Positions 10,769 through 54,040 of a DNA stretch of 64,000 nt are shown piece after piece. Origin of the DNA: Mauremys mutica (Eukaryota; Chordata; Testudines; Geoemydidae); NCBI RefSeq assembly GCF_020497125.1, contig NC_059094.1:753203-817202 (forward strand), given 5' to 3'. Each line of letters begins with the position of its first letter. Position 1 is the first letter of the stretch. The notes under the pieces are model-generated. The model was given only the letters and a program-made list of their open reading frames with translations, did no database searches and was not told where the DNA came from. Made by a program: the position numbers and the translations under genes.

Positions 10769-13084
<2,316 letters not shown>

Positions 13085-41199: not shown

Positions 41200-42102
41200 A
41201 CTCCCTTCCCTGCGTCCCCCCAGCCCTGTCCTCTGTCCCGTCCCCTCTGTCCATCCGTCCCTGCCCCCTTCGTCCCCTCCGCCCCATCCCTGCATCCCCC
41301 CAGCCCTGTCCTCTTTCCCGTCCCCTGTCTCCATCCGTCCCTGCCCCCTTCGTCCCCTCCGTCCCGTCCCTGCATCCCCCCAGCCCTGTCCTCTGTCCCG
41401 TCCCGTCTCCATCCGTCCCTGCCCCCTTCGTCCCCTCCGTCCCGTCCCTGCGTCTCCCCAGCCCTGTCCTCCGTCCCGTCCCGTCTCCATCCGTCCCTGC
41501 CCCCTTCGTCCCCTCCGCCCCATCCCTGCACCCCCCCAGCCCTGTCCTCTGTCCCGTCCCCTGTCTCCATCCGTCCCTGCCCCCTTCGTCCCCTCCGCCC
41601 CATCCCTGCATCCCCCCAGCCCTGTCCTCCGTCCCATCCCCTGTCTCCATCCGTCCCTGCCCCCTTCGTCCCCTCCGTCCCCTCCGTCCCGTCCCTGCAT
41701 CCCCCCAGCCCTGTCCTCTGTCCCGTCCCCTGTCTCCATCCGTCCCTGCCCCCTTCGTCCCCTCCGCTCCATCCCTGCATCCCCCCAGCCCTGTCCTCTG
41801 TCCCGTCCCCTGTCTCCATCCGTCCCTGCCCCCTTCGTCCCCTCCGTCCCATCCCTGCGTCTCCCCAGCCCTGTCCCCCGTCCCGTCCCGTCTCCATCCG
41901 TCCCTGCCCCCTTCGTCCCCTCCGCCCCATCCCTGCACCCCCCCAGCCCTGTCCTCTGTCCCGTCCCGTCTCCATCCGTCCCTGCCCCCTTCGTCCCCTC
42001 CGCCCCATCCCTGCATCCCCCCAGCCCTGTCCTCCATCCCGTCCCCTGTCTCCATCCGTCCCTGCCCCCTTCGTCCCCTCCGTCCCCTCCGTCCCGTCCC
42101 TG
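41200..42102 (+). repeat. GC-rich minisatellite, left array, first part
   Basis: The word CAGCCCTGTCCTC recurs at 41221, 41301, 41381, 41459 and onward, giving units of about 76-88 bp, mostly 78-80. About 11 to 12 units lie before the provirus. Variants differ by one or two dinucleotides (GTCCCGTCTCC against GTCCCCTGTCTCC). Very long open frames on both strands are a by-product of composition. Confidence 0.95.
42099..42102. repeat. Target-site duplication CCTG, left
   Basis: Matches CCTG at 50616-50619 directly outside the other LTR. A 4-bp duplication is usual for gamma-type retroviral integrases. Removing the provirus and one copy restores an unbroken minisatellite unit. Confidence 0.9.
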
Positions 42103-42531
42103 TGTTAGCCAAAAGGGCTCGTTCTCCCTGGAGCTAGTCAATTACCCCAAGGAGGCACAGAGACCGAAGTAGAGTATAAACAGATAGCAGCCCTTTATTA
42201 AGACGATCAGCTGAGCGGGTGCCCCCCTCGGTTCATACCAGAGGAGTGACACCCCGAAACAGAGCAGTGAGTACATATATATACCATTTTTGACGTCATA
42301 TCAGACCATAGTTATACAGCATATTTTCAGGATTTTGCAGACGTGGGGTACATAGGTCTATTTACTTGTACTCTAAACGTTCCACGTTTTTCCCTTTGAT
42401 CCTGGTACTATTCAATATTTGTTATTAGTTATGTAAGCAGGTCATGGATCATTTAGCAATAGCATCATTTCCTAGAACAACCAAGCACATTCCCAAAACA
42501 GACAACTAAGCACAAATCATATTATCTATCA
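42103..42531 (-). repeat. 3' LTR
   Basis: Begins TG and ends CA in either orientation. Read on the minus strand: a CRE palindrome TGACGTCA (42291-42298), a TATATATA box (42275-42283) and an AATAAA signal (42199-42194) about 80 bp further on, which defines a short R region. The provirus transcript would be cleaved just past AATAAA in this LTR. Confidence 0.95.
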
Positions 42532-42544
42532 ATCCCCCCTTTTT
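42532..42544 (-). promoter_or_regulatory. Polypurine tract
   Basis: The minus strand reads AAAAAGGGGGGAT directly before the LTR start TGATAG. This is the expected primer site for plus-strand DNA synthesis. Confidence 0.85.
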
Positions 42545-42564
42545 ATGAAAGCATTTTAAGAGCT

Positions 42565-44268
42565 TCAATATCCCCAGTCCTCAGCTTTTACTGGTTGGAA
42601 TAACACCATAACTCGCTGGTTTATAGTTTGGTTGATCAACCGTCGGATTATTGTCACTAAACAGGGGGTTAAACAAGCTAAAGCTAAGAGGGCCATGATA
42701 ATACATATAACAAAAAGGAAGCTTTGGCGTATCCATTCTTTGTGTGGTAACCAGGAAGTGAGCCAATTTGTGTCCCACCCCTTCCAGGTTTGCACTGGGA
42801 CGTGGGTTAGCTTCCTCATTTCTTTTGTTAAGCGTTTAACTGCCTTTCCATTATCATCTATTTGTAAGCAACAATTTGATTCATTTAATTTTGCACATAA
42901 TCCTCCTTCTTCTGCTAGCAAATAATCAAGGGCTATATGATGCTGATAAATTGCAGTTCTCATTTGAGTAGCTTGATCAGCTAAAAGATCAAGTGCTGTG
43001 GCTGTTTGGTTTGTTACTATTTCCAAAATAGCTTGCAATCTGATTATTCGATTCAGATTATAAATCGGTTCCCTAGCTCCTGTTACGAGCTCATCGGGGT
43101 TCCACGTGGCTGGTCCATAATGTTCTATGATTCTTTCAGGAGGCCACTCCTGTGTACCCCATTTTTGGGAACTTCCAGCTGTTAAAGTGGAATCAATAGA
43201 TCGTTGTTCCCTAATAAGATCATCATATACTTTGACTCCTAGAGTTTTTCCTTGCAAGAGAGGTAGTAGGAAGAATAGAGGCCTAATATATCCTACATAA
43301 CATACCCCGGACCAATTGGGTGGTAGCCGACGGTAAGCGTATTGACCACAAATCCAGTAGTGGCCTTTTAGGGCCCATGTCCCATTAGCAAAGGGTCCAT
43401 CCCAGGGGTCAGGAGTAGTTGTGTTAGGTGACAGGGACCAATTATTAGTTTTATACTTGGGCATTTCAAAATACAAGTGATCGCCAGGTCCTAACGGTCC
43501 TCCCCCCAGAACTGATTCGCCTTTAGAATTACAGTGCTCACATTTCCAGGCTCCTGCTCCCATTTTCCATACACAATTGCAACCCCCTCCTTTAGGCTGA
43601 GTAGTGCTTGACCAAAATTGCCTAAAGTGGGTTGTTCGGGTCCCATTATAGTGTTGCCACGCCCAGCGATAGAGTCGTATTACGTGATCCTTGGCTGTGG
43701 TATTATCTCGTTGGCAACTTAAGAATAGATAATTATCAAAGAATTTATCCTGTTGTATTGTGTTGCAACTGCTGCTACTGGCAAAATCATCACTATCATA
43801 AAGTTGATAGGAGCAGGCTATCCAGCTGCCATTAGTCAGCTGTACATGGGTTTGATTCCATCGCCCCTGATATTTAGAGCAATTGTATGGTAAACAATTA
43901 GGATCCCAGCAATCAAAGCCTGGGGATAAGGTCCATTCACATTGACTTTCCCCTACATATACTCCTTTTGGTTTTGTTCTATTAAGACATAGTATACCCA
44001 TCCCAGAGGAATAGAGTCGCCATGGGCTACTATCCTGGGCCCATAGTTCTGTTCCATTACGGACCATACTTAAATTACTGACCCACCATTTGGGCTGTAC
44101 TGGTTGGGCTACCCATGGCCATTCGTTTAAGTCTCCTGGTCCTCCACATACCCAACAATTACTAAGATTAAAGGACTTCGCTATTGTTTCTCCCAGTTCC
44201 AGGAAGGTATTTTCCCATCCAGTACAATGAAGAAGGTATATACTTAAAATTAACAGTATTATTTGCAT
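42565..44268 (-). CDS. env: Retroviral Env, class I type, intact frame
   Basis: 567-residue envelope precursor without stops. Residues 1-17 form a signal peptide; a CWVC motif (38-41) is the CXXC motif of class I surface subunits; the surface part has many NXS/T sites and Cys pairs. A hydrophobic stretch at about 329-345 could be a fusion segment. The nearest basic cleavage candidate, REQR (353-356), lies after it and is not the usual RXKR. The transmembrane part has a heptad-rich coil (about 400-450), then Cys458 with Cys466-Cys467, a C-X7-CC arrangement where gamma-type Envs normally have C-X6-CC, and a membrane anchor at about 516-540 with a short tail. The ATG shares one base with the pol stop (TAATG). 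Translation would require a spliced mRNA. Confidence 0.94.
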   Translation of the reverse strand: MQIILLILSIYLLHCTGWENTFLELGETIAKSFNLSNCWVCGGPGDLNEWPWVAQPVQPKWWVSNLSMVRNGTELWAQDSSPWRLYSSGMGILCLNRTKPKGVYVGESQCEWTLSPGFDCWDPNCLPYNCSKYQGRWNQTHVQLTNGSWIACSYQLYDSDDFASSSSCNTIQQDKFFDNYLFLSCQRDNTTAKDHVIRLYRWAWQHYNGTRTTHFRQFWSSTTQPKGGGCNCVWKMGAGAWKCEHCNSKGESVLGGGPLGPGDHLYFEMPKYKTNNWSLSPNTTTPDPWDGPFANGTWALKGHYWICGQYAYRRLPPNWSGVCYVGYIRPLFFLLPLLQGKTLGVKVYDDLIREQRSIDSTLTAGSSQKWGTQEWPPERIIEHYGPATWNPDELVTGAREPIYNLNRIIRLQAILEIVTNQTATALDLLADQATQMRTAIYQHHIALDYLLAEEGGLCAKLNESNCCLQIDDNGKAVKRLTKEMRKLTHVPVQTWKGWDTNWLTSWLPHKEWIRQSFLFVICIIMALLALACLTPCLVTIIRRLINQTINQRVMVLFQPVKAEDWGY

Positions 44269-47200
44269 TATGATTTCTTAAACGAACCCTTAAGTCCGTC
44301 CAGGGGCTTGTAGGTCCAGTTTGAAGCTTCTCCCGTGCTCCCTCGGGCTTCCGGTGCCGAGGTAGACAGAGGGCTGTCGTCCTCTTCTGGTGGTTCGACT
44401 CCTTCGTCAGGAGTAAGAAACCGTTTTACTCTTGTGTGATGAGTCCACTTGTTGCTCCCAAGAAGCTTTACTGCGGCGTGGCTGATGAGGGAGATGGTGT
44501 GTGGACCTTCCCACCGTGGTGTAAGGGGATCACGTTTCCACTTCTTGACGAGGACCTGGTCACCAATTTGAAATGGATGGACAGGTCGGTCGAGGGGTAG
44601 GGATTGGAAAGATGCGGCGTATTGATGTAGCTGAGATAAAACAGTCTGTAGGAAAGAAACTTGTTTCCATAAGGTATCTTTTCCCACTTCCCAGGTCACG
44701 TCTTCCCGGAATTCTGCAATAGGAATTCGGGGAGGAAATCCGAATACTAGTTCAAAGGGTGACAGTTTTAATCCTCGTCTTGGGGCCCTTCGCAAGCGAG
44801 TTAGTGCTAGGGGCAAAGCATCAAGCCATTTCAATCCTGATTCCATGCATATTTTAGTAAGAGTTTCTTTTAATGTTCTATTCATTCTTTCCACTTGGCC
44901 TGAACTTTGGGGGCGCCAAGCTGTATGAAAGTTCCACTGGATGCCTAAGGCTTGAGATACTTCTTGTGTCACCTTTGAAATAAAGTGACTACCCTGATCA
45001 GAATTAATAACCTCTGGTACGTGGTATCGGGGGATTATTTCCTGTATCAAGGCCTTAGCAACAGCTCGGGCTTGACAATGTCTGGTGGGGAAACACTCCA
45101 CCCAACCAGTTAGTTGGTCAACAAAGACAAGTAAATACTTGTAGCCCCTGCATGGGGGTACTTCGGCAAAATCAACTTGCCATCTCTGAAACGGATATGT
45201 GGCCCAGGGCTGACCTCCCATCGGGGCTGGAGGTTCTCGGCCCTTCTGATTTGTTTGTTGGCAAATTGGGCAAGTGTTGACAATCCGTTGGGCCTCCATA
45301 TGCATTCTTAATCCTTTAAGGGTTCGAGTAGCTAAGTCGACCATAGCTGCTGATCCCATATGCCCTTCCTTATGTAACAGTTGAAGGGTTTCCTTTAAAA
45401 TTGGCTGAGGCACAAAGATTTCTCCTCCTGGCAATTTCCACCATCCCGAGGGGAGCAAACGGGCCCCTATGCATTGGGCATATTGTGTTTCTTCAATAGT
45501 ATACTGTGGGGTTGGGACTCTACATTCAGTATCTTTTACTATCAAAAGCCACGCAACCCCTTCTTGTGCTGCCTCTCGTGCTGCCTTATCAGCTAATTGA
45601 TTGTATTTTCGCTGCTCCCCTTGAGGGGTTTTGCCGTGAGCACGTACGTGGATTACAGCAACTTGTAGCGGGAGCATTAGAGCCTCTAGTAAGGATTTAA
45701 TAAGGCCTCCATGTGCTATCTTTTGGCCTGAGGCTGTAATGAATCCTCTTTCCTTCCATAAGGTGCCGTGAGCATGCACCACCATATAAGCATAACGACT
45801 GTCTGTATATAAATTAAGAATCTTTCCTGTGCCCATTCGGAGGGCCTCAATGAGAGCCACCAATTCTGCTGCCTGGGCTGACCAATGTGGATTTAATTTA
45901 AATTTATAGATCTGGTCATTCTTAATTACCACTGCTGCCCCTGTGTATCGTTTGCCATTAAGTACGTAGCTAGATCCATCTACGTATCCCTCGATGTCAG
46001 GGTTAGGCCACGGTACGTCAGAGAGGTCTGAGCGTGGTTTAGTTTCTTGCTGCAGAACCTCAATACAATCATGTATGGGTTCGGGCTTACGGGGGTCCCC
46101 ACGGTTAGGCAACAAGGTGGCTGGATTAAGGGAACTGGTGGGTCGAAAGGTCAAGTTAGGAGCTAACAGGAGTTCTACTTCGTAGCGTGAGTGGCGACTG
46201 GGATTTAAATGCCTAGCTCCGGCCCCTGTTCCCAATATTTGGGGTACTCCATGCGGGACTATGACCTCAGTATCTCCACCCAGGGTCAATTTCTCAGCTT
46301 CTTGCACGAGAAGGGCAGTAGCTGCTACAGCACGCAAGCAAGCAGGCCAGCCTCTGGCGACAGGGTCTAAGACCTTTGAATAATAACCAATAGGTTGCCA
46401 GGTTGGTCCTGATCGCTGGCACAGAAGTCCAGCCGCTACTCCCTTTCGCTCATGGACGTATAGGGTAAATGGTTTTCGTGGGTCCGGGAGAGCCAAAACA
46501 GGGGGTTGAATTAGTGCTGTTTTAAGTTCTTGAAATGCTTTCTCCATTTCCCTAGTCCACGTCCAGTGTAGTAACCCGTCCTTAGTCAATGATTCATACA
46601 GGGGCTTAGCCTTCCCTCCGTAGTCAGGGATCCAGAGCCGACAAAATCCGGTTAGGCCTAAGAAGGCCCTCAGTTCACACGGATTTTGTGGTTGGGGGCT
46701 CTCAAGTATAGCTTGGATTCGTTCCTTACCCAAGCTACGACTTCCCTGTGTTATTTGATACCCAAGAAAAGTCACTTGTTGTTTTACTAGTTGGATTTTG
46801 CTTTTTGAGACTTTATACCCCTGTTTGCCAAGATAATTCAGGAGTTCTACAGTTTGCTTTTTACATGCTGTTTTTGTTTCAGTGCTTAATAGCAAATCAT
46901 CACAGTACTGAACTATGGAACATGTGGGATGTTGGACTAGGAATGGGGCCAGGTCTCTTTTTAGCTGGCTGCCAAAAATCTCGGGAGCACAGGTCAGTCC
47001 CTGTGGAATAACAGTCCACAGATACTGAGCTTTATAATGTGTATCTGGATCTTCCCATTCAAAAGCGAACAGTTTCTGGGATTCGGTGTCCAGAGGTATT
47101 GAAAAGAAAGCATCCTTTAGATCTATCACCGAAAACCAGGTATGTTCTTTGGGAATCTGACTGAGGATTGTGTGGGGATTCGGGACAACTGGATAGGGGG

Positions 47201-47948
47201 CCTCTACAAGTTTATTAACTTGTCGCAAATCCTGTACTAAACGGTATTGTCCATCAGGCTTGGGAATCCCCATTATTGGAGTATTGTATGGGGAGGTACC
47301 TTCTTTTAACCATCCACATCGTATGAACTTTAAAATGAGCGGTTTTAGTCCAATTCGTGTGGTTAGTTTCAGGGGGTATTGCCGGACACGGACTGGCCTG
47401 CTGCCCTCTTTTAATTGGATCTGTATCGGGGAAGCATTACAAGCTCGTGCCACGCCTCCTGTTTCTGCCCAGACCTCAGGATTAACCCTTGATGTCAACT
47501 CCCCTTCAGTCTCCTGGTTGTCTGTGTAAAGGATTTTATTACCCATTAGAGCCATTATATAATTGGAAGTTTGCTGTTTAGGCAAGCATACTTCTATCGT
47601 CCCATTATTGAACGAGATCTCCGCTTGCAATTTAGTAAGGATGTCTCGTCCCAACAATGCAATGGGGCAGGAAGGGTGGCAAACAAACTGGTGTACGATA
47701 TGATAGTCACCCACTTTTACTAGAAGGGGAAGGGTCTTTGCTACTATTACATTTCGTCCTTCAAGTCCTTGGACAATAGTATGCCCCGAGGGTCTGCCTG
47801 GCGGTGCTGATTTAAGGGGAAGTACACTCAGAGCAGCCCCAGTGTCAATCAGGGCTTCAATTTGGCAGCCCCCTACCCTAATTTCTACCGTGGGATCCAG
47901 TCTAGCAGGTTGTGCTGCTAAGAGGGGCCGCTGGGTCCCTCGGCCTCT
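44268..47948 (-). CDS. pol: Retroviral Pro-Pol, read through from gag, intact
   Basis: A frame of 1226 residues directly after the gag stop and in the same frame. Protease: active-site DTGA at residues 35-38 after the UGA, with the LLGRD motif later. Numbering from the GTG at 47714: RT has Asp198 and a YCDD catalytic box (270-273); RNase H has Asp579, Glu617, Asp638 and Asp709; integrase has His781/His785/Cys815/Cys818 and Asp848, Asp906, Glu942, i.e. D-X57-D-X35-E, then a PRWEGPHTI stretch of the GPY/F type. All catalytic residues are present and there is no stop or frameshift. The protein should be made only as a Gag-Pol fusion, so a separate start codon is not expected. Confidence 0.95.
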   Translation of the reverse strand, partial: RGRGTQRPLLAAQPARLDPTVEIRVGGCQIEALIDTGAALSVLPLKSAPPGRPSGHTIVQGLEGRNVIVAKTLPLLVKVGDYHIVHQFVCHPSCPIALLGRDILTKLQAEISFNNGTIEVCLPKQQTSNYIMALMGNKILYTDNQETEGELTSRVNPEVWAETGGVARACNASPIQIQLKEGSRPVRVRQYPLKLTTRIGLKPLILKFIRCGWLKEGTSPYNTPIMGIPKPDGQYRLVQDLRQVNKLVEAPYPVVPNPHTILSQIPKEHTWFSVIDLKDAFFSIPLDTESQKLFAFEWEDPDTHYKAQYLWTVIPQGLTCAPEIFGSQLKRDLAPFLVQHPTCSIVQYCDDLLLSTETKTACKKQTVELLNYLGKQGYKVSKSKIQLVKQQVTFLGYQITQGSRSLGKERIQAILESPQPQNPCELRAFLGLTGFCRLWIPDYGGKAKPLYESLTKDGLLHWTWTREMEKAFQELKTALIQPPVLALPDPRKPFTLYVHERKGVAAGLLCQRSGPTWQPIGYYSKVLDPVARGWPACLRAVAATALLVQEAEKLTLGGDTEVIVPHGVPQILGTGAGARHLNPSRHSRYEVELLLAPNLTFRPTSSLNPATLLPNRGDPRKPEPIHDCIEVLQQETKPRSDLSDVPWPNPDIEGYVDGSSYVLNGKRYTGAAVVIKNDQIYKFKLNPHWSAQAAELVALIEALRMGTGKILNLYTDSRYAYMVVHAHGTLWKERGFITASGQKIAHGGLIKSLLEALMLPLQVAVIHVRAHGKTPQGEQRKYNQLADKAAREAAQEGVAWLLIVKDTECRVPTPQYTIEETQYAQCIGARLLPSGWWKLPGGEIFVPQPILKETLQLLHKEGHMGSAAMVDLATRTLKGLRMHMEAQRIVNTCPICQQTNQKGREPPAPMGGQPWATYPFQRWQVDFAEVPPCRGYKYLLVFVDQLTGWVECFPTRHCQARAVAKALIQEIIPRYHVPEVINSDQGSHFISKVTQEVSQALGIQWNFHTAWRPQSSGQVERMNRTLKETLTKICMESGLKWLDALPLALTRLRRAPRRGLKLSPFELVFGFPPRIPIAEFREDVTWEVGKDTLWKQVSFLQTVLSQLHQYAASFQSLPLDRPVHPFQIGDQVLVKKWKRDPLTPRWEGPHTISLISHAAVKLLGSNKWTHHTRVKRFLTPDEGVEPPEEDDSPLSTSAPEARGSTGEASNWTYKPLDGLKGSFKKS

Positions 47949-49529
47949 TCATTGGGGAGGGTCACTATCCGAGCCTCCTGCATTGTAAAGGACTGGGGGT
48001 GGGATTGTTTCAGTCCTGCGTCCCTGTCGTATCAGGTGCCTGTTAGGACACTCATTCTTCCAATGTCCTTCCTGTCTGCACAGAGCACACTGATTTCGTC
48101 CTAAGCGGGGACGTCGGGGCTTTCCTCCATCCCCTATAAAAACATTCTCATTTCTCCTATTTTGTTTTTCGCCCTTGTCCTGTCCTTGCCTCAGAGCCAT
48201 TATGAGAGCCTTTGTTCCTTTCTTCCTTTCCTCCTCGTCCCGTCTATCATACACCTTTAAAGCAATTTCCAACAGTTCCTCTATATTCTTCCCTGATGCT
48301 CCTTCTATCTTTTGTAATTTCTTTCTAATATCCTCATAAGATTGACCAATAAAGAGGGGAGTTAGCACTGCCTTCCCATTCTGATCTCTCGGGTCTAAAT
48401 CTGTGTACCTTCTACAGGTTTCGCATAAGCGCTCATAAAAGGCTGCTGGATTTTCTTTCCGTTCTTGCCTTATATTATACAATTTGGCCCAATTAGGGGT
48501 TTTCCGAATACATTGTTTCATACCCTGTACTATAGCCGTGGCGTATCTCTGATGGGCTTTTATCTCAGTCTCACTATGTGACCATTCGGGGTCCTTCTCG
48601 GGCAGTATATCATCTACAAGTTCGAGAGTCCCCTTGTTTTTTTCTACCCACTCACGGGCCTTTGCTAAGACCATACGCCGTTCGTCCGGTGTTAGCAGAA
48701 CATTTAATACTACTTGCATGTCCCCCCATGTTGGATTATGTGCTGTTATAAGCATTTCAAAAATTGCTGTCAAGGGGGCCGGGTCCTCTGAAAACGGGGG
48801 ATTTTGTAGTTTCCAATTATATAAATCACTCGTGGCAAAGGGGACATATACCATGGCAGGCTTTCCCTCTTTCCCTATTGTTTCACGGAGAGGGAGTGCC
48901 GTATGCACTGTGGTTTCATCTGTGTTGCTCCTGGTGTTTTTATATACACCGTCCGCATTCTCCTGTAAAAACGTATGTGTAATTTCCGTGTCAGTGGGGC
49001 TTGTCTCTTTTACTACAGTGGGAGGGTGCTTAGGGCCCGTACCCGCCATTATTTGTTTATCCAAGGCTTGCAAACTGGGATATAGTGGGGGCGGGAGTAC
49101 ATAATTTGGAGCCGAAGGAATTACAGAGGGTGGACAGGGCTTTAAGGGCGGGTATGGCTTTTTCATCGGTATTCGGGGTTGTCTTTTCATCGGGATCCGA
49201 GCCATTAATATTTGCAAAGTTTTTTGTCTACATTCTTGTAGCCAAGGTGGGGGATCGGATACCAGATCCTGCCAAATGTTAATATACGGGTACTGGTCCC
49301 AATGCCCGTCTCGGGTTACGATATTGTGTACGGCTTGTACTACTTCTAGTTTCAGTGAACCCCCGTCTGGCCAATCTACTCCAAAGGTTGTCCATTCTAT
49401 TGTACAATATTTTATGAGATTGTCTTTACTTAACGGGACACCAAAGTCTGATTGGCGTTTAAACGCTTGCCAATTATTTAGCATACAACCAAGGGGTGTC
49501 CCTGCATAATAACTCTGAGTGGATCCCAT
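47949..49529 (-). CDS. gag: Retroviral Gag, intact frame
   Basis: 526-residue structural polyprotein for matrix, capsid and nucleocapsid. It starts MGSTQS, a good N-myristoylation signal for membrane targeting. A proline-rich middle (about 125-155) contains LYPSL, an ALIX-type late-domain motif. The capsid part includes a major-homology-like region around ENPAAFYERLCETCRRY. A charged coil follows (DRRDEEERKK), and nucleocapsid has one zinc knuckle, Cys481-X2-Cys-X4-His-X4-Cys494; a single knuckle is usual in gamma-like viruses. It ends in TGA at 47951-47949 in frame with pol. The start ATG follows a 657-bp leader. Confidence 0.95.
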   Translation of the reverse strand: MGSTQSYYAGTPLGCMLNNWQAFKRQSDFGVPLSKDNLIKYCTIEWTTFGVDWPDGGSLKLEVVQAVHNIVTRDGHWDQYPYINIWQDLVSDPPPWLQECRQKTLQILMARIPMKRQPRIPMKKPYPPLKPCPPSVIPSAPNYVLPPPLYPSLQALDKQIMAGTGPKHPPTVVKETSPTDTEITHTFLQENADGVYKNTRSNTDETTVHTALPLRETIGKEGKPAMVYVPFATSDLYNWKLQNPPFSEDPAPLTAIFEMLITAHNPTWGDMQVVLNVLLTPDERRMVLAKAREWVEKNKGTLELVDDILPEKDPEWSHSETEIKAHQRYATAIVQGMKQCIRKTPNWAKLYNIRQERKENPAAFYERLCETCRRYTDLDPRDQNGKAVLTPLFIGQSYEDIRKKLQKIEGASGKNIEELLEIALKVYDRRDEEERKKGTKALIMALRQGQDKGEKQNRRNENVFIGDGGKPRRPRLGRNQCALCRQEGHWKNECPNRHLIRQGRRTETIPPPVLYNAGGSDSDPPQ

Positions 49530-50186
49530 CTTCTTATATGGTCGTAATCAAACACTATATACACTTACAGGGAAGAGACCTTCAGACAGTCGGCCGACCC
49601 CCATTGCAATCAAGATATCCTGGTCATTGAGTTTCCTCTAGCAGGAGTCTTGGGGCGGCTGAGGTCAGCGTAAGTCTTACCGGTCCCTATAAGACTGACA
49701 ACTCCCTAACATACATTCATTCTCTGATACAAGGTAAAAAGAAAAAGCACTAATATACTAAACAACAGTACTAGGCCCAAAACATGGATAACCCACAAAC
49801 TAGTTGAATCCCACTGTGCAGGCATGTTAACACAGAAGGTTAAAACAACATACTTACAATATACCTTCCTGTATACAGGCAGCCTCTTAAGTTCCCCTGA
49901 GTCCTCCCGCACTTCGGGGGCGTCACTCCTCAAACCTAGAGGCAAACGCACTTACCACCCGGAGTGGCCGCGTCCGGCTCTGGAGACTCGGAACAGGGCA
50001 AATTTAGGATCTCTGTGTCCTTGTGGACCCTCTCTAGAGAGGACACCGCCGCCCCGGTCGGCCGAGGTGATCCGAGAGCACGAGCCGCACAATCAGCTCG
50101 AGGTGGCCACTTCTCTCGGTACCAGCTCACTAGCCCCCGGTGCGATAGCGCCCTCTACAGGGAGGCTCCTGCCTGGCTCGCCAAAT
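49530..50186 (-). promoter_or_regulatory. Proviral leader with PBS and splice donor
   Basis: Between the 5' LTR and gag. The primer-binding site (50183-50166) reads TGGCGAGCCAGGCAGGAG on the minus strand, 3 bases after the LTR; from memory of tRNA sequence this matches a tRNA-Arg 3' end at 17 of 18 positions. A strong splice donor, GGTAAGTG, lies at 49956-49949 and could serve env mRNA. The rest should hold the packaging signal. Short open frames here are not supported as genes. Confidence 0.8.
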
Positions 50187-50615
50187 TGTTAGCCAAAAGG
50201 GCTCGTTCTCCCTGGAGCTAGTCAATTACCCCAAGGAGGCACAGAGACCGAAGTAGAGTATAAACAGATAGCAGCCCTTTATTAAGACGATCAGCTGAGC
50301 GGGTGCCCCCCTCGGTTCATACCAGAGGAGTGACACCCCGAAACAGAGCAGTGAGTACATATATATACCATTTTTGACGTCATATCAGACCATAGTTATA
50401 CAGCATATTTTCAGGATTTTGCAGACGTGGGGTACATAGGTCTATTTACTTGTACTCTAAACGTTCCACGTTTTTCCCTTTGATCCTGGTACTATTCAAT
50501 ATTTGTTATTAGTTATGTAAGCAGGTCATGGATCATTTAGCAATAGCATCATTTCCTAGAACAACCAAGCACATTCCCAAAACAGACAACTAAGCACAAA
50601 TCATATTATCTATCA
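50187..50615 (-). promoter_or_regulatory. 5' LTR (proviral promoter)
   Basis: Identical to the 3' LTR by eye over 429 bp. Here the U3 signals act as promoter: CRE TGACGTCA at 50375-50382 immediately upstream of TATATATA at 50359-50367, with transcription expected to start about 25 bp beyond, near 50335. AATAAA lies at 50283-50278. Confidence 0.95.
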
Positions 50616-51299
50616 CCTGCATCCCCCCAGCCCTGTCCTCCGTCCCGTCCTGTCTCCATCCGTCCCTGCCCCCTTCGTCCCCTCCGTCCCGTCCCTGCAT
50701 CCCCCCAGCCCTGTCCTCCGTCCTGTCCCCTGTCTGCATCCGTCCCTGCCCCCTTCGTCCCCTCCGTCCCGTCCCTGCATCCCCCCAGCCCTGTCCTCCG
50801 TCCCGTCCTGTCTCCATCTGTCCCTGCCCCCTTCGTCCCCTCCGCCCCATCCCTGCACCCCCCAGCCCTGTCCTCCGTCCCGTCCTGTCTCCATCCGTCC
50901 CTGCCCCCTTCGTCCCCTCCGTCCCATCCCTGCATCCCCCCAGCCCTGTCCTCCGTCTTGTCCCCTGTCTGCATCCGTCCCTGCCCCCTTCGTCCCCTCC
51001 GTCCCGTCCCTGCATCCCCCCAGCCCTGTCCTCCGTCCCGTCCTGTCTCCATCCGTCCCTGCCCCCTTCATCCCCTCCGTCCCGTCCCTGCATCCCCCCA
51101 GCCCTGTCCTCCGTCCTGTCCCGTCTGCATCCGTCCCTGCCCCCTTCGTCCCCTCCGTCCCGTCCCTGCATCCCCCCAGCCCTGTCCTCCGTCCCGTCCC
51201 GTCTCCATCCGTCCCTGCCCCCTTCGTCCCCTCCGTCCCGTCCCTGCGTCCCCCCAGCCCTGTCCTCTGTCCCGTCCCCTGTCTCCATCCGTCCCCTCC
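50616..51299 (+). repeat. GC-rich minisatellite, left array, second part
   Basis: Continues the array after the provirus. CAGCCCTGTCC recurs at 50628, 50706, 50786, 50863, 50941, 51021, 51099, 51177 and 51255, so the units are 77-80 bp. The first four bases are the right target duplication CCTG. Units here favour CCTCCGTCC and TCTGCATCCG variants, more like the inverted array than like the units left of the provirus. Confidence 0.95.
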
Positions 51300-52367
51300 A
51301 GTTCATTTGCAGCCCAGCTCAGCCCCGGTCACTTTCGCCAGGTGGGGCCGGGCAGCTCCCCTGCGCTGCGATCCAGCACCGGGCACCGTCTTGCTCCCAG
51401 CCGCGGAGCACAGGGCAGGCTGTGCAGGGTGGGGAGGGATACTCGCATTGCTGACACCTGCCTGCCTCAGGGTTTTCTCCCTGCCCGCCGCGAGGATCGC
51501 GAGGGAGGGGAGCAGCGTGCCGCTGAGAGCCGTGTCAAATTGGCCGGGTGGCTGCCTGCAGACAACACGGGGGAGAGAACCAGACAGCCCTGTAACGCAG
51601 CCGCTGCTCGGTACCCGGATCCACGCTGCTGTGCCACCGAGATCCATCAAGTGCCACGGGAGCGGGGGACACACCACCCACCCCATGGAAGTGTCAGGGG
51701 CTGCTCGGGCTGGGAGCCCGACGGAGAGTCCAGCTGGGGAGAGGCTCAAAGCGGGGGGTAAAAACGTTGCACCAAAAATATGAAAAAGTTGCAAGACAAA
51801 AACCCTTTAATTACAGCTCGGACGGGCCCCTCCGGAGCAGGGGGGGCTGGGGGCCAGCCGCGGTCCCGCCGCCGGGCAGCAGCAGCAGCAGCGAGGCAGC
51901 AGGAGGGGGCGGCGCGAGACGGTTCCCGGGGATTCCTTGCTCGCGCCGCTGCCAGGGGGAGCCGCTGCTGCTGCGAGCTGGTGCGCGGGCGGTGGAGTGG
52001 GGGGTGTCCTCGCGGGCGGGGCTCGCGCCCAGAGCGCTGACACTGTCCGTTCGGAACTGGGACGCCGCGCGGCCGGGCCGCCCCACTTATGACGTCACCG
52101 CCCTCTGCCCCCGCCCAACCACCGTGGTCACCCGGGCTCCGCCACTGTCGCCGCGGCAACCACCAAAACAAACGTTCTCGGAACACGTGGGGCAGGGAGG
52201 GGGGTAAGGAAGGGCCGTGACGCAAACAAAGCAGCTGCTGGCAGCGCGCGGCAATGACGTCCCCGAGGAGGAGTCCGCGACGCAGGGACGGCTCCTCCCC
52301 CCGCCCCCCCGCTCGCGGGCAGCGCCCCAGCGCCTCGCGCACCTGTGCTGGAGGGGAGGCGGCGGCG
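51300..52367. promoter_or_regulatory. CpG-rich island at the palindrome centre
   Basis: About 1.07 kb dense in CpG, with GGGCGGGG-type boxes. Specific sites: TGACGTCA at 52090-52097, TGACGTCC at 52254-52261, and GTCGCCGCGGCAAC at 52147-52160, a full match to the RFX X-box consensus GTNRCC-N2-RGYAAC. It resembles a housekeeping or cilia-type promoter, but no first exon with a convincing coding frame was found on either strand. The CAGCAGCAGCAGCAG run at 51878 is a short triplet repeat. Confidence 0.6.
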
Positions 52368-53870
52368 GATGCAGGGACGGGACGGAGGGGACGAAGGGGG
52401 CAGGGACGGATGGAGACAGGACGGGAGGGAGGACAGGGCTGGGGGGTGCAGGGACGGGACGGAGGGGACGAAGGGGGCAGGGACGGATGCAGACAGGGGA
52501 CGGGACGGAGGACAGGGCTGGGGGGATGCAGGGACGGGACGGAGGGGACGAAGGGGGCAGGGATGCAGGGACGGGACGGAGGGGACGAAGGGGGCAGGGA
52601 CGGATGCAGACAGGGGACGGGACGGAGGACAGGGCTGGGGGGATGCAGGGACGGGACGGAGGGGGCAGGGACGGATGGAGACAGGACGGGACAGAGGACA
52701 GGGCTGGGGTGATGCAGGGACGGGACGAAGGGGGCAGGGACGGATGGAGACAGGGGACGGGACGGAGGACAGGGCTGGGGGGATGCAGGGACGGGACGGA
52801 GGGGACGAAGGGGGCAGGGACGGATGGAGACGGGACGGGACGGAGGACAGGGCTGGGGGGATGCAGGGACGGGACGGAGGGGACAAAGGGGGCAGGGATG
52901 GATGGAGACGGGACGGGACAGAGGACAGGGCTGGGGGGTGCAGGGACGGGACGGAGGGGACGGACGAAGGGGGCAGGGACGGATGGAGACAGGGGACGGG
53001 ACGGAGGACAGGGCTGGGGGGATGCAGGGACGGGACGGAGGGGACGAAGGGGGCAGGGACGGATGGAGACGGGACGGGACGGAGGACAGGGCTGGGGGGA
53101 TGCAGGGACGGGACGGAGGGGACAAAGGGGGCAGGGATGGATGGAGACGGGACGGGACAGAGGACAGGGCTGGGGGGTGCAGGGACGGGACGGAGGGGAC
53201 GGAGGGGGCAGGGACGGATGCAGACGGGACGGGACGGAGGACAGGGCTGGGGGGACGCAGGGAGGGGACGGAGGGGACGAAGGGGGCAGGGACGGATGCA
53301 GACAGGACGGGACAGAGGACAGGGCTGGGGGGATGCAGGGACGGGACGGAGGGGACGAAGGGGGCAGGGACGGATGGAGACAGGGGACGGGACGGAGGAC
53401 AGGGCTGGGGGGATGCAGGGACGGGACGGAGGGGACGAATGGGCAGGGACGGACGGAGGACAGGGCTGGGGGGATGCAGGGATGGGACGGAGGGGACGAA
53501 GGGGGCAGGGACGGATTGAGACGGGACGGAGGACAGGGCTGGGCGGATGCAGGGACGGGACGGAGGGAACGGAGGGGGCAGGGACGGATGGAGACAGGAC
53601 GGGACAGAGGACAGGGCTGGGGGGATGCAGGGACGGGACGGAGGGGACGAAGGGGGCAGGGACGGATGCAGACAGGGGACGGGACAGAGGACAGGGCTGG
53701 GGGGATGCAGGGACGGGACGGAGGGGACGAAGGGGGCAGAGACGGATGGAGACAGGGGACGGGACAGAGGACAGGGCTGGGGGGATGCAGGGATGGGACG
53801 GAGGGGACGAAGGGGATAGGGACGGATGGACAGAGGGGACGGGACAGAGGACAAGGATGGAGAGACGCAG
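52368..53870 (-). repeat. GC-rich minisatellite, right array, inverted
   Basis: The same repeat in reverse complement (GGATGCAGGGACGGGACGG, GACAGGGCTGGGG), about 19 units of about 75-82 bp, some partial. Total length is close to that of the left array without the provirus. Long open frames on both strands are compositional. Confidence 0.95.
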
Positions 53871-54040
53871 GGAAGGGAGTGAAGGATGGACGGAGTGGGA
53901 GGGTGACCAGATCGCAAGCGTGAACTATCAGGCCACGTTGGTGGAGCTGGGGGGGAGACAGACAGACACAGGTGCGCAGCCCCGTTGGGAGCCAGAGGCA
54001 CACTGGTCCGCCTGGCCGTGTGCTACCAGCGTGCTCTTTC
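53871..54040 (-). repeat. Right shoulder of the minisatellite palindrome
   Basis: Reverse complement of 41036-41199. Homology ends within CTTTCCTAT at about 54034. Confidence 0.9.

What the first reader, a model, noticed from the sequence alone, without database searches (positions are those of the whole stretch)
42103..50615. Complete provirus with identical LTRs and all genes open
Both 429-bp LTRs read as identical, gag, pro-pol and env have no stops, all catalytic residues of PR, RT, RNase H and IN are present, and the 4-bp target duplication is intact. This means a very recent germline insertion, possibly polymorphic in the species, in a reptile lineage.
Basis: partly seen in the sequence, partly recalled or inferred. 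Interest (0 to 1): 0.85.

Follow-up and report, generated by a model that had tools for sequence, protein, structure and literature searches.

The report
Young intact turtle retrovirus with micro-gene
A pond-turtle genome carries a recently inserted, coding-complete retrovirus from a young family, and that family appears to carry a tiny membrane-protein gene in front of its usual genes that selection has kept, together with two uncommon molecular habits.

Summary
42103-50615 is a minus-strand provirus with identical 429-bp LTRs, a 4-bp duplication and open gag, pol and env. The host is taken to be the pond turtle Mauremys mutica (matching contig length). "Very recent, possibly polymorphic" is only partly supported: zero differences in 858 LTR bases allow about 3.5 My at 1e-9 per site per year, and polymorphism could not be tested. 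It is one of 13 two-LTR proviruses (11 independent insertions) whose LTR pairs differ by 0-7 bases. Selection on env (dN/dS 0.11-0.14) and mosaic gag and env point to spread by infection.

The parts
50187..50615 (-). 5' LTR (429 bp), with TGACGTCA, a TATA-like run and AATAAA
42103..42531 (-). 3' LTR, identical to the 5' LTR
42099..42102 (.). target-site duplication CCTG, copy at the 3' end of the element
50616..50619 (.). target-site duplication CCTG, copy at the 5' end of the element
50166..50183 (-). primer binding site; exact complement of the 3' end (with CCA) of three tRNA-Arg(ACG) genes of this genome
   Evidence: 11 of 13 proviruses have another site, which I recall as the tRNA-Arg(TCT) type
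49954..49955 (-). splice donor GT (hexamer GGTAAG, kept in 13 of 13 copies)
   Evidence: not tested with RNA
49706..49825 (-). 39-codon leader ORF (plus stop) for a single membrane helix, in its own frame upstream of gag
47949..49529 (-). gag (MGxxxS N-terminus, MA, CA p30, one CCHC knuckle), ending in TGA
47866..47951 (-). UGA readthrough site: stop, 8-nt spacer, 60-nt invariant stretch (47881-47940), proposed pseudoknot
44268..47948 (-). pro-pol (PR, RT with YCDD, RNase H, IN with MLV-type C-terminus)
42565..44268 (-). env (CWVC in SU, minimal R-X-X-R site, CX7CC in TM); its ATG overlaps the pol stop by 1 nt
42534..42544 (-). polypurine tract AAAAAGGGGGG
44646..44659 (-). candidate env splice acceptor (TTTCTTTCCTACAG); one of two pattern matches, not tested

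Best explanation
This is a germline provirus of a gammaretrovirus-like (class I) turtle retrovirus lineage in Mauremys mutica. Shown: structure, open frames, a small family of recent insertions, and protein-level constraint on gag, pol and env and on a 39-codon ORF in the leader. Inferred mechanism: the LTR drives one unspliced RNA; reverse transcription is primed by tRNA-Arg(ACG); unspliced RNA gives a 39-residue single-pass membrane protein and Gag, and ribosomes that read through UGA at a conserved element give Gag-Pol; splicing from the donor at 49955 gives Env. The family seeded the germline repeatedly by env-dependent infection from a recombining virus pool. The small protein most likely sits in the producer-cell or virion membrane and assists infectivity or blocks a membrane-borne restriction factor, the place that glycoGag fills in murine leukaemia virus.
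For: LTR identity and TSD. Domains and motifs. 13 two-LTR proviruses, LTR pair differences 0,1,1,1,1,1,2,3,3,3,3,5,7, 4-bp duplications in 13 of 13. Own-versus-copy dN/dS: pol 0.10-0.15 (9 copies), env 0.11-0.14 (6), gag 0.20-0.26 (8). Mosaic gag and SU. Leader ORF: 16 of 16 leaders found have the ATG, 14 of 16 are open to the same stop; internal branches 19.5 synonymous against 17.4 other changes where 8.8 and 28.2 are expected, terminal branches neutral; the 19 top windows of 542 are in its frame and overlap it. UGA in 12 of 13; 60-nt invariant run 8 nt after it.
Against: No RNA, protein or population data. The leader ORF has no relative in the protein collection and none in this genome outside the family. 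Close pairs show no constraint on it (C13-C501, C10-C501 and C498-C522 have dN above dS, on one synonymous change each; own-C542 has one missense and no synonymous change). The test statistic is over-dispersed: off-frame control windows reach z 3.53 and 3.16 over all branches, and the window sd is 1.68. The RNA fold after UGA is not unusual (z -0.76); 14 of 300 shuffles reach the pseudoknot score. Recency rests on short LTRs.
Confidence: 0.8

Rival explanations
1. The leader ORF is only a regulatory upstream ORF that tunes gag translation; its peptide does nothing.
For: Short, in the leader, AUG with A at -3, out of frame with gag.
Against: A plain uORF needs no amino-acid constraint, yet internal branches show about twice the expected number of synonymous changes, and 23 of 39 residues are invariant in the 10 copies aligned (10 of 16 found).
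Confidence: 0.2
2. The leader ORF signal is chance: a fast leader with uneven mutation, chosen after looking at it.
For: Overall variability is the same inside and outside the ORF (35 variable columns of 117 inside, 34 and 35 on either side); off-frame control windows reach z 3.53 and 3.79.
Against: It is the frame with conserved ATG and stop, open in 14 of 16; the windows ranked above it of 542 overlap it in the same frame; no off-frame window reached p <= 1e-3 in 4 of 4 pairwise scans.
Confidence: 0.1
3. The copies arose by retrotransposition inside germ cells from one master provirus; env is a passenger.
For: Several copies are nearly as young as this one by LTR.
Against: env keeps dN/dS 0.11-0.14 in the 6 copies compared; between-copy dS of 0.06-0.38 far exceeds within-pair LTR change; SU and gag are mosaics of distinct lineages.
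Confidence: 0.1
4. LTR identity is due to gene conversion or assembly collapse, and the insertion is old.
For: Not excluded by one assembly.
Against: All frames open, and other family members with other flanks show similarly low LTR divergence.
Confidence: 0.05

Closest known systems
Invading ERVs (ERVi) of vertebrates, PMC10435555 (passages read)
   Same: Identical LTRs and intact gag, pro, pol, env; turtles are among the hosts of the 412 elements in 123 species.
   Different: Insertional polymorphism, their third criterion, is untested here; the main text holds no 'Mauremys'; its supplements could not be read, so this very element may be in their list.
Env of Mauremys reevesii LOC120399180 (P0004)
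   Same: 561 of 567 residues identical.
   Different: On a 287.9-Mb contig. If that corresponds to our contig 2, the only family LTR hits there belong to a provirus with an interrupted env and 84-85% LTRs, so it would be another insertion; the correspondence is assumed from length.
MLV glycoGag (PMC7764263 passages; PMC5120145 start of abstract)
   Same: Membrane protein encoded from the leader upstream of gag.
   Different: GlycoGag is an N-terminal extension of Gag; this ORF has its own stop and another frame.
sORF2/FAST-like proteins of insect MDG1 retrotransposons, PMC11952523 (preprint, passages)
   Same: Small transmembrane ORF upstream of gag; low non-synonymous/synonymous rates are cited for it there.
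   Different: 39 residues instead of 63-107, no N-myristoylation motif, no polybasic run; and this virus has its own env.
HERV-T and HERV-W pre-gag regions (PMC5388530, PMC5775608 passages)
   Same: Class I ERVs with a pre-gag region, an ORF in HERV-T.
   Different: No membrane micro-protein or selection test is given in the passages read.
Bat betaretrovirus ERVs with ORFs upstream of gag (PMC3621094 passages)
   Same: Extra ORF upstream of gag in an ERV; PBS switches between tRNA-Lys types.
   Different: Betaretroviruses; those ORFs begin in the 5' LTR.
XtERV-S of Xenopus (PMC8278194 passages)
   Same: TGA between gag and pol in one frame; class I envelope; intact and recent.
   Different: Class III element, 158-bp leader, 5-bp duplication.

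Membership tests
Class I (gamma-like) ERV | Gag p30 and MLV-type MA domains | tested here: met
   PF02093 155.4 bits, PF01140 57.3 bits, both over cut-off
Class I (gamma-like) ERV | gag and pol in one frame, separated by a suppressible stop | tested here: met
   TGA at 47949-47951, same frame; suppression itself not tested
Class I (gamma-like) ERV | MLV-type integrase C-terminus | tested here: met
   PF18697 38.3 bits, cut-off 29.2
Class I (gamma-like) ERV | 4-bp target duplication (recalled as typical) | tested here: met
Class I (gamma-like) ERV | CCHC zinc knuckle in Gag | tested here: inconclusive
   PF00098 20.0 bits against a cut-off of 20.8; CX2CX4HX4C readable
Genus Gammaretrovirus (mammalian clade) | RT groups with mammalian gammaretrovirus rows | tested here: not met
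   RT tree of 33 rows, root at the midpoint: own in a turtle clade (100/99) with Pelodiscus, apart from the 9-row mammal clade that holds 'Gammaretrovirus sp.' (100/99)
Genus Gammaretrovirus (mammalian clade) | CX6CC in TM (recalled) | tested here: not met
   CX7CC at residue 461 of the frame
ERVi of PMC10435555 | identical LTRs | tested here: met
ERVi of PMC10435555 | intact gag, pro, pol, env | tested here: met
ERVi of PMC10435555 | insertional polymorphism | not testable with these tools
   one assembly only
GlycoGag | leader start codon in frame with gag | tested here: not met
   leader frames differ and the ORF has its own stop
FAST/sORF2-like | N-myristoylation motif MGxxxS/T | tested here: not met
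   residue 2 is P, S, Y or H in the 10 copies aligned; some sORF2 also lack it
FAST/sORF2-like | polybasic run after the membrane helix | tested here: not met
   one R or K there in the 10 copies aligned
FAST/sORF2-like | single membrane helix | tested here: met
   hydropathy 2.97 over 19 residues; model helix 4-38, mean pLDDT 85.5, pTM 0.48; prediction only

The most novel reading that the evidence does not exclude
A turtle retrovirus lineage carries a dedicated accessory gene of only 39 codons ahead of gag, in its own frame, for a membrane micro-protein kept by selection while the virus was infectious: a small stand-alone counterpart to glycoGag, in a virus that also decodes Pol through UGA and uses a YCDD polymerase.
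Probability: 0.55. Interest if true: 0.65.

Novelty: new variant of a known kind. Interest (0 to 1): 0.5.

Why it matters
It documents a retrovirus lineage that seeded the germline of a Mauremys pond turtle repeatedly and recently, with a near-identical envelope in a sister species. If the leader gene is real, it adds a very small membrane accessory protein to class I retroviruses, which are usually called simple, and gives a ready comparison for asking why retroviruses and retrotransposons of separate lineages place membrane proteins upstream of gag. The YCDD clade is a natural experiment on the variable residue of the RT active-site motif.

Tried and rejected
GlycoGag-like extension of Gag: rejected, other frame and own stop. 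FAST-like protein: rejected as membership. A mutated PBS: rejected, the PBS matches three tRNA-Arg(ACG) gene ends of this genome exactly. A longer leader protein from the 81-codon stop-to-stop frame of this copy: rejected, 12 of 13 copies have a stop and 8 of 13 an indel in that frame upstream of the ATG. Relatives in IMG/VR and phage records: no match. Literature (listings seen unless said otherwise): 'YCDD' with 'reverse transcriptase' 3 papers, no retrovirus in the titles; 'pre-gag' with endogenous retrovirus and open reading frame 7 papers, passages of two read; 'upstream of gag' with small open reading frame and transmembrane 1 paper, passages read; UGA readthrough of gag-pol in endogenous retroviruses 4 papers, passages of one read; upstream open reading frame with leader and primer binding site 0 papers; accessory gene upstream of gag 5 papers, passages of two read; Mauremys with endogenous retrovirus 1 paper, Mauremys mutica with genome and retrovir 1 paper, neither about this element by title.

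The RT tree holds 33 rows, 32 relatives picked by host from the 120 listed of 409 hits. The env tree holds 27 rows: 30 relatives picked from 118 hits, 4 dropped for coverage. In the env tree the turtle clade (100/100) lies among bird rows with forks of 93/94, 82/76 and 93/90; a bird-turtle exchange of env is suggested, not shown.
Full report
What is there. The window lies in a 2.48-Gb, 595-contig genome at C23:753203-817202. Contig 1 of that genome has 375,114,972 bases, the same length as the contig named for Mauremys mutica LOC123363738, so I take the host to be M. mutica, a geoemydid turtle. The element runs on the minus strand from 50615 to 42103. Its two 429-bp LTRs are identical and it is flanked by CCTG on both sides. 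Removing the element and one CCTG gives 30 bases that occur uninterrupted 7 times in the minisatellite around it, so it is a clean insertion into a minisatellite unit.

Coding anatomy. Gag carries an MGxxxS start, MLV-type matrix and p30 capsid domains and a zinc knuckle just under Pfam's cut-off. Pol carries protease, RT, RNase H and integrase with an MLV-type C-terminus; by sequence its best solved relatives are RT/RNase H p80 chains (594 bits) and MLV RT, against 158 bits for Pr125Pol (XMRV and foamy virus, respectively, by recall). The expected catalytic residues are in place, with 35 residues between the second D and the E of integrase. Env has a CWVC motif near the start of SU, a minimal R-X-X-R site, CX7CC in TM and 16 possible N-glycosylation sites; its one Pfam match is the C-terminal part of TLV_coat.

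The family. The LTR finds 42 places in the genome (40 of 620 candidates were scored, so this is a lower bound). From these I recognise 13 proviruses with two LTRs, all 13 with 4-bp duplications; three on C6 share flanks and are one insertion copied by segmental duplication, leaving 11 independent insertions. LTR pair differences are 0 (this one), 1 (C542, C10, C501 with one gap, C498, C7), 2 (C522), 3 (C13, C2 with one gap, C1, C6b), 5 (C6a) and 7 (C6c, two gaps). The nearest sibling by LTR is C542, 97%. Three of 13, this one included, have gag, pol and env free of stops and frameshifts in the matches; the other ten have a stop or a frameshift in one or more genes.

How it spread. Between this provirus and other copies dN/dS is 0.10-0.15 in pol (9 copies), 0.11-0.14 in env (6 copies) and 0.20-0.26 in gag (8 copies); the remaining copies of each gene were left out because their matches were split or their frames broken, and stop codons in those kept were skipped. 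Divergence between copies (dS 0.06-0.38) is far larger than within LTR pairs, so most of it arose before integration. Identity along the genes is mosaic (10 of 12 other copies scanned for gag and env, 9 for pol): in the gag windows at 801 and 901 this copy is 83.5-86% identical to C542, its nearest sibling elsewhere, but 94.5-96.5% to C13; in the env windows at 401 to 701 (SU) C542, C13, C2 and C501 are 90-99% identical to it and the remaining six 79.5-90.6%. Repeated infection from a recombining pool explains this better than copying inside one cell lineage. A sister species, M. reevesii, has an env with 6 of 567 residues different.

Age. At 1e-9 substitutions per site per year, zero differences in 858 bases give an expected wait of about 1.2 My for the first difference and a 95% upper bound of about 3.5 My; at 0.5e-9, 7 My (rates recalled; arithmetic mine). 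Turtles evolve at about one third of the human rate (PMC4054807, passages). Recent is likely; polymorphic is untested.

The leader gene. Between the splice donor GT at 49955 (hexamer kept in 13 of 13) and gag lies an ORF of 39 codons, 49825 to 49709, stop at 49706-49708, in a frame other than gag. It encodes a hydrophobic helix (mean hydropathy 2.97 over 19 residues; AlphaFold2 helix 4-38, mean pLDDT 85.5) with a C-terminal Cys. A six-frame search of the whole genome found 16 copies among 17 candidates, all 16 in this family. The ATG is present in 16 of 16; 14 of 16 are open to the common stop, C6a having a nonsense codon and C2 a one-base deletion. On a tree made from leader columns outside the ORF, all branches together give 25 synonymous changes where random placement gives 13.7 (sd 3.0; 0 of 200 reach 25). 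Split by branch, internal ones (mostly before integration) have 19.5 synonymous, 17.4 missense and 0 nonsense changes, where random placement gives 8.8, 25.2 and 3.0 (z 4.4); terminal ones have 5.5, 11.6 and 1.0 against 4.9, 11.6 and 1.5, that is neutral. Control windows are over-dispersed: of 40 over all branches, z runs from -2.83 to 3.58, the top being in the ORF frame at 329 but off-frame windows at 225 and 82 reaching 3.53 and 3.16. In a scan of all 542 windows on internal branches, this ORF ranks 8; the 7 above it overlap it in the same frame, and the best off-frame window, in a frame closed in every copy, scores 3.79. Over the 10 between-subfamily pairs computed dN/dS is 0.06-0.23; among the 4 close pairs there are 0 or 1 synonymous changes and 1 to 7 missense ones, so no constraint shows there. 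The number of variable columns is no lower in the ORF (35 of 117) than on either side (34 and 35): the ORF is not conserved as DNA, only as protein. No relative turned up in the protein collection.

Recoding. The gag stop is TGA in 12 of 13 copies and GGA in one. The longest invariant run in the alignment of gag and the start of pol (13 copies, 1770 positions, 377 variable) is 60 nt at 47881-47940, starting 8 nt after the stop; in the rest of pol (10 copies, 3583 positions) the longest run is 38 nt. MLV also starts its readthrough pseudoknot 8 nt after the stop (recalled). A pseudoknot can be drawn: 47931-47939 with 47892-47900 (8 of 9 pairs) and 47924-47930 with 47866-47872 (7 pairs), 100% of cells paired in 9 distinct rows, with one G-C/G-U change; there is no covariation to prove it. 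A simple pseudoknot score is reached by 14 of 300 shuffles and 2 of 259 gag-pol windows, one of which is this site; the best-scoring fold uses an alternative first stem. The ordinary fold is not unusual (z -0.76). UGA in this role has a precedent in XtERV-S (PMC8278194, passages).

YCDD. The 12 other proviruses have YCDD too. Of 120 listed RT relatives (of 409), 5 have YCDD, four from Chelydra, Gopherus, M. mutica and M. reevesii and one unnamed, all at 85-86% identity; 107 have YVDD and 8 other letters. The RT tree puts these five and this copy together (100/99), Pelodiscus (YVDD) next, and the mammalian gammaretrovirus rows elsewhere.

Primer. Eleven of 13 proviruses have TGGCGACTCCGCCGGGA (9 exactly, C13 and C1 with one change); this one and C542 have a different site. 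The site here is the exact complement of three gene ends in this genome that ARAGORN reads as tRNA-Arg(ACG); C542 differs from it at two positions.

Verdict. A real, young, coding-complete turtle provirus: a new member of a known kind in outline, and a variant by its leader gene, UGA, YCDD and primer. Turtles have been called hubs of retrovirus transmission (PMC6001957, passages) and intact recent ERVs are known in turtles (PMC10435555, passages), so the provirus alone is not surprising; the leader gene is what deserves follow-up.

Noticed in passing
window 10792-11206: Tandem 84-bp repeats that look like a C2H2 zinc-finger exon by recall; not searched.
   Followed up: no
window 41203-42102, 50616-51295 and 52367-53878: About 80-bp GC-rich minisatellite; a third array nearby has a unit that reads as the opposite orientation.
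   Followed up: partly
G000 C6:123.7, 124.1, 133.3, 133.6 Mb and C508:124 kb: One insertion of the family was multiplied with its flanks by segmental duplication, including a solo LTR. C501:525915 likewise shares the 3' flank of C542.
   Followed up: partly
G000 C23:495266-508054: Fragments of further family members about 290-310 kb from this provirus on the same contig.
   Followed up: partly
window 50375-50382 (5' LTR): A palindromic TGACGTCA just upstream of the TATA-like run, a CREB-type site by recall.
   Followed up: no
env tree: Turtle env rows nest among bird env rows (identity over residues 301-540 up to 73% at full coverage), while RT identity to bird rows in the listing is at most 54%; env may have moved between bird and turtle viruses.
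   Followed up: partly
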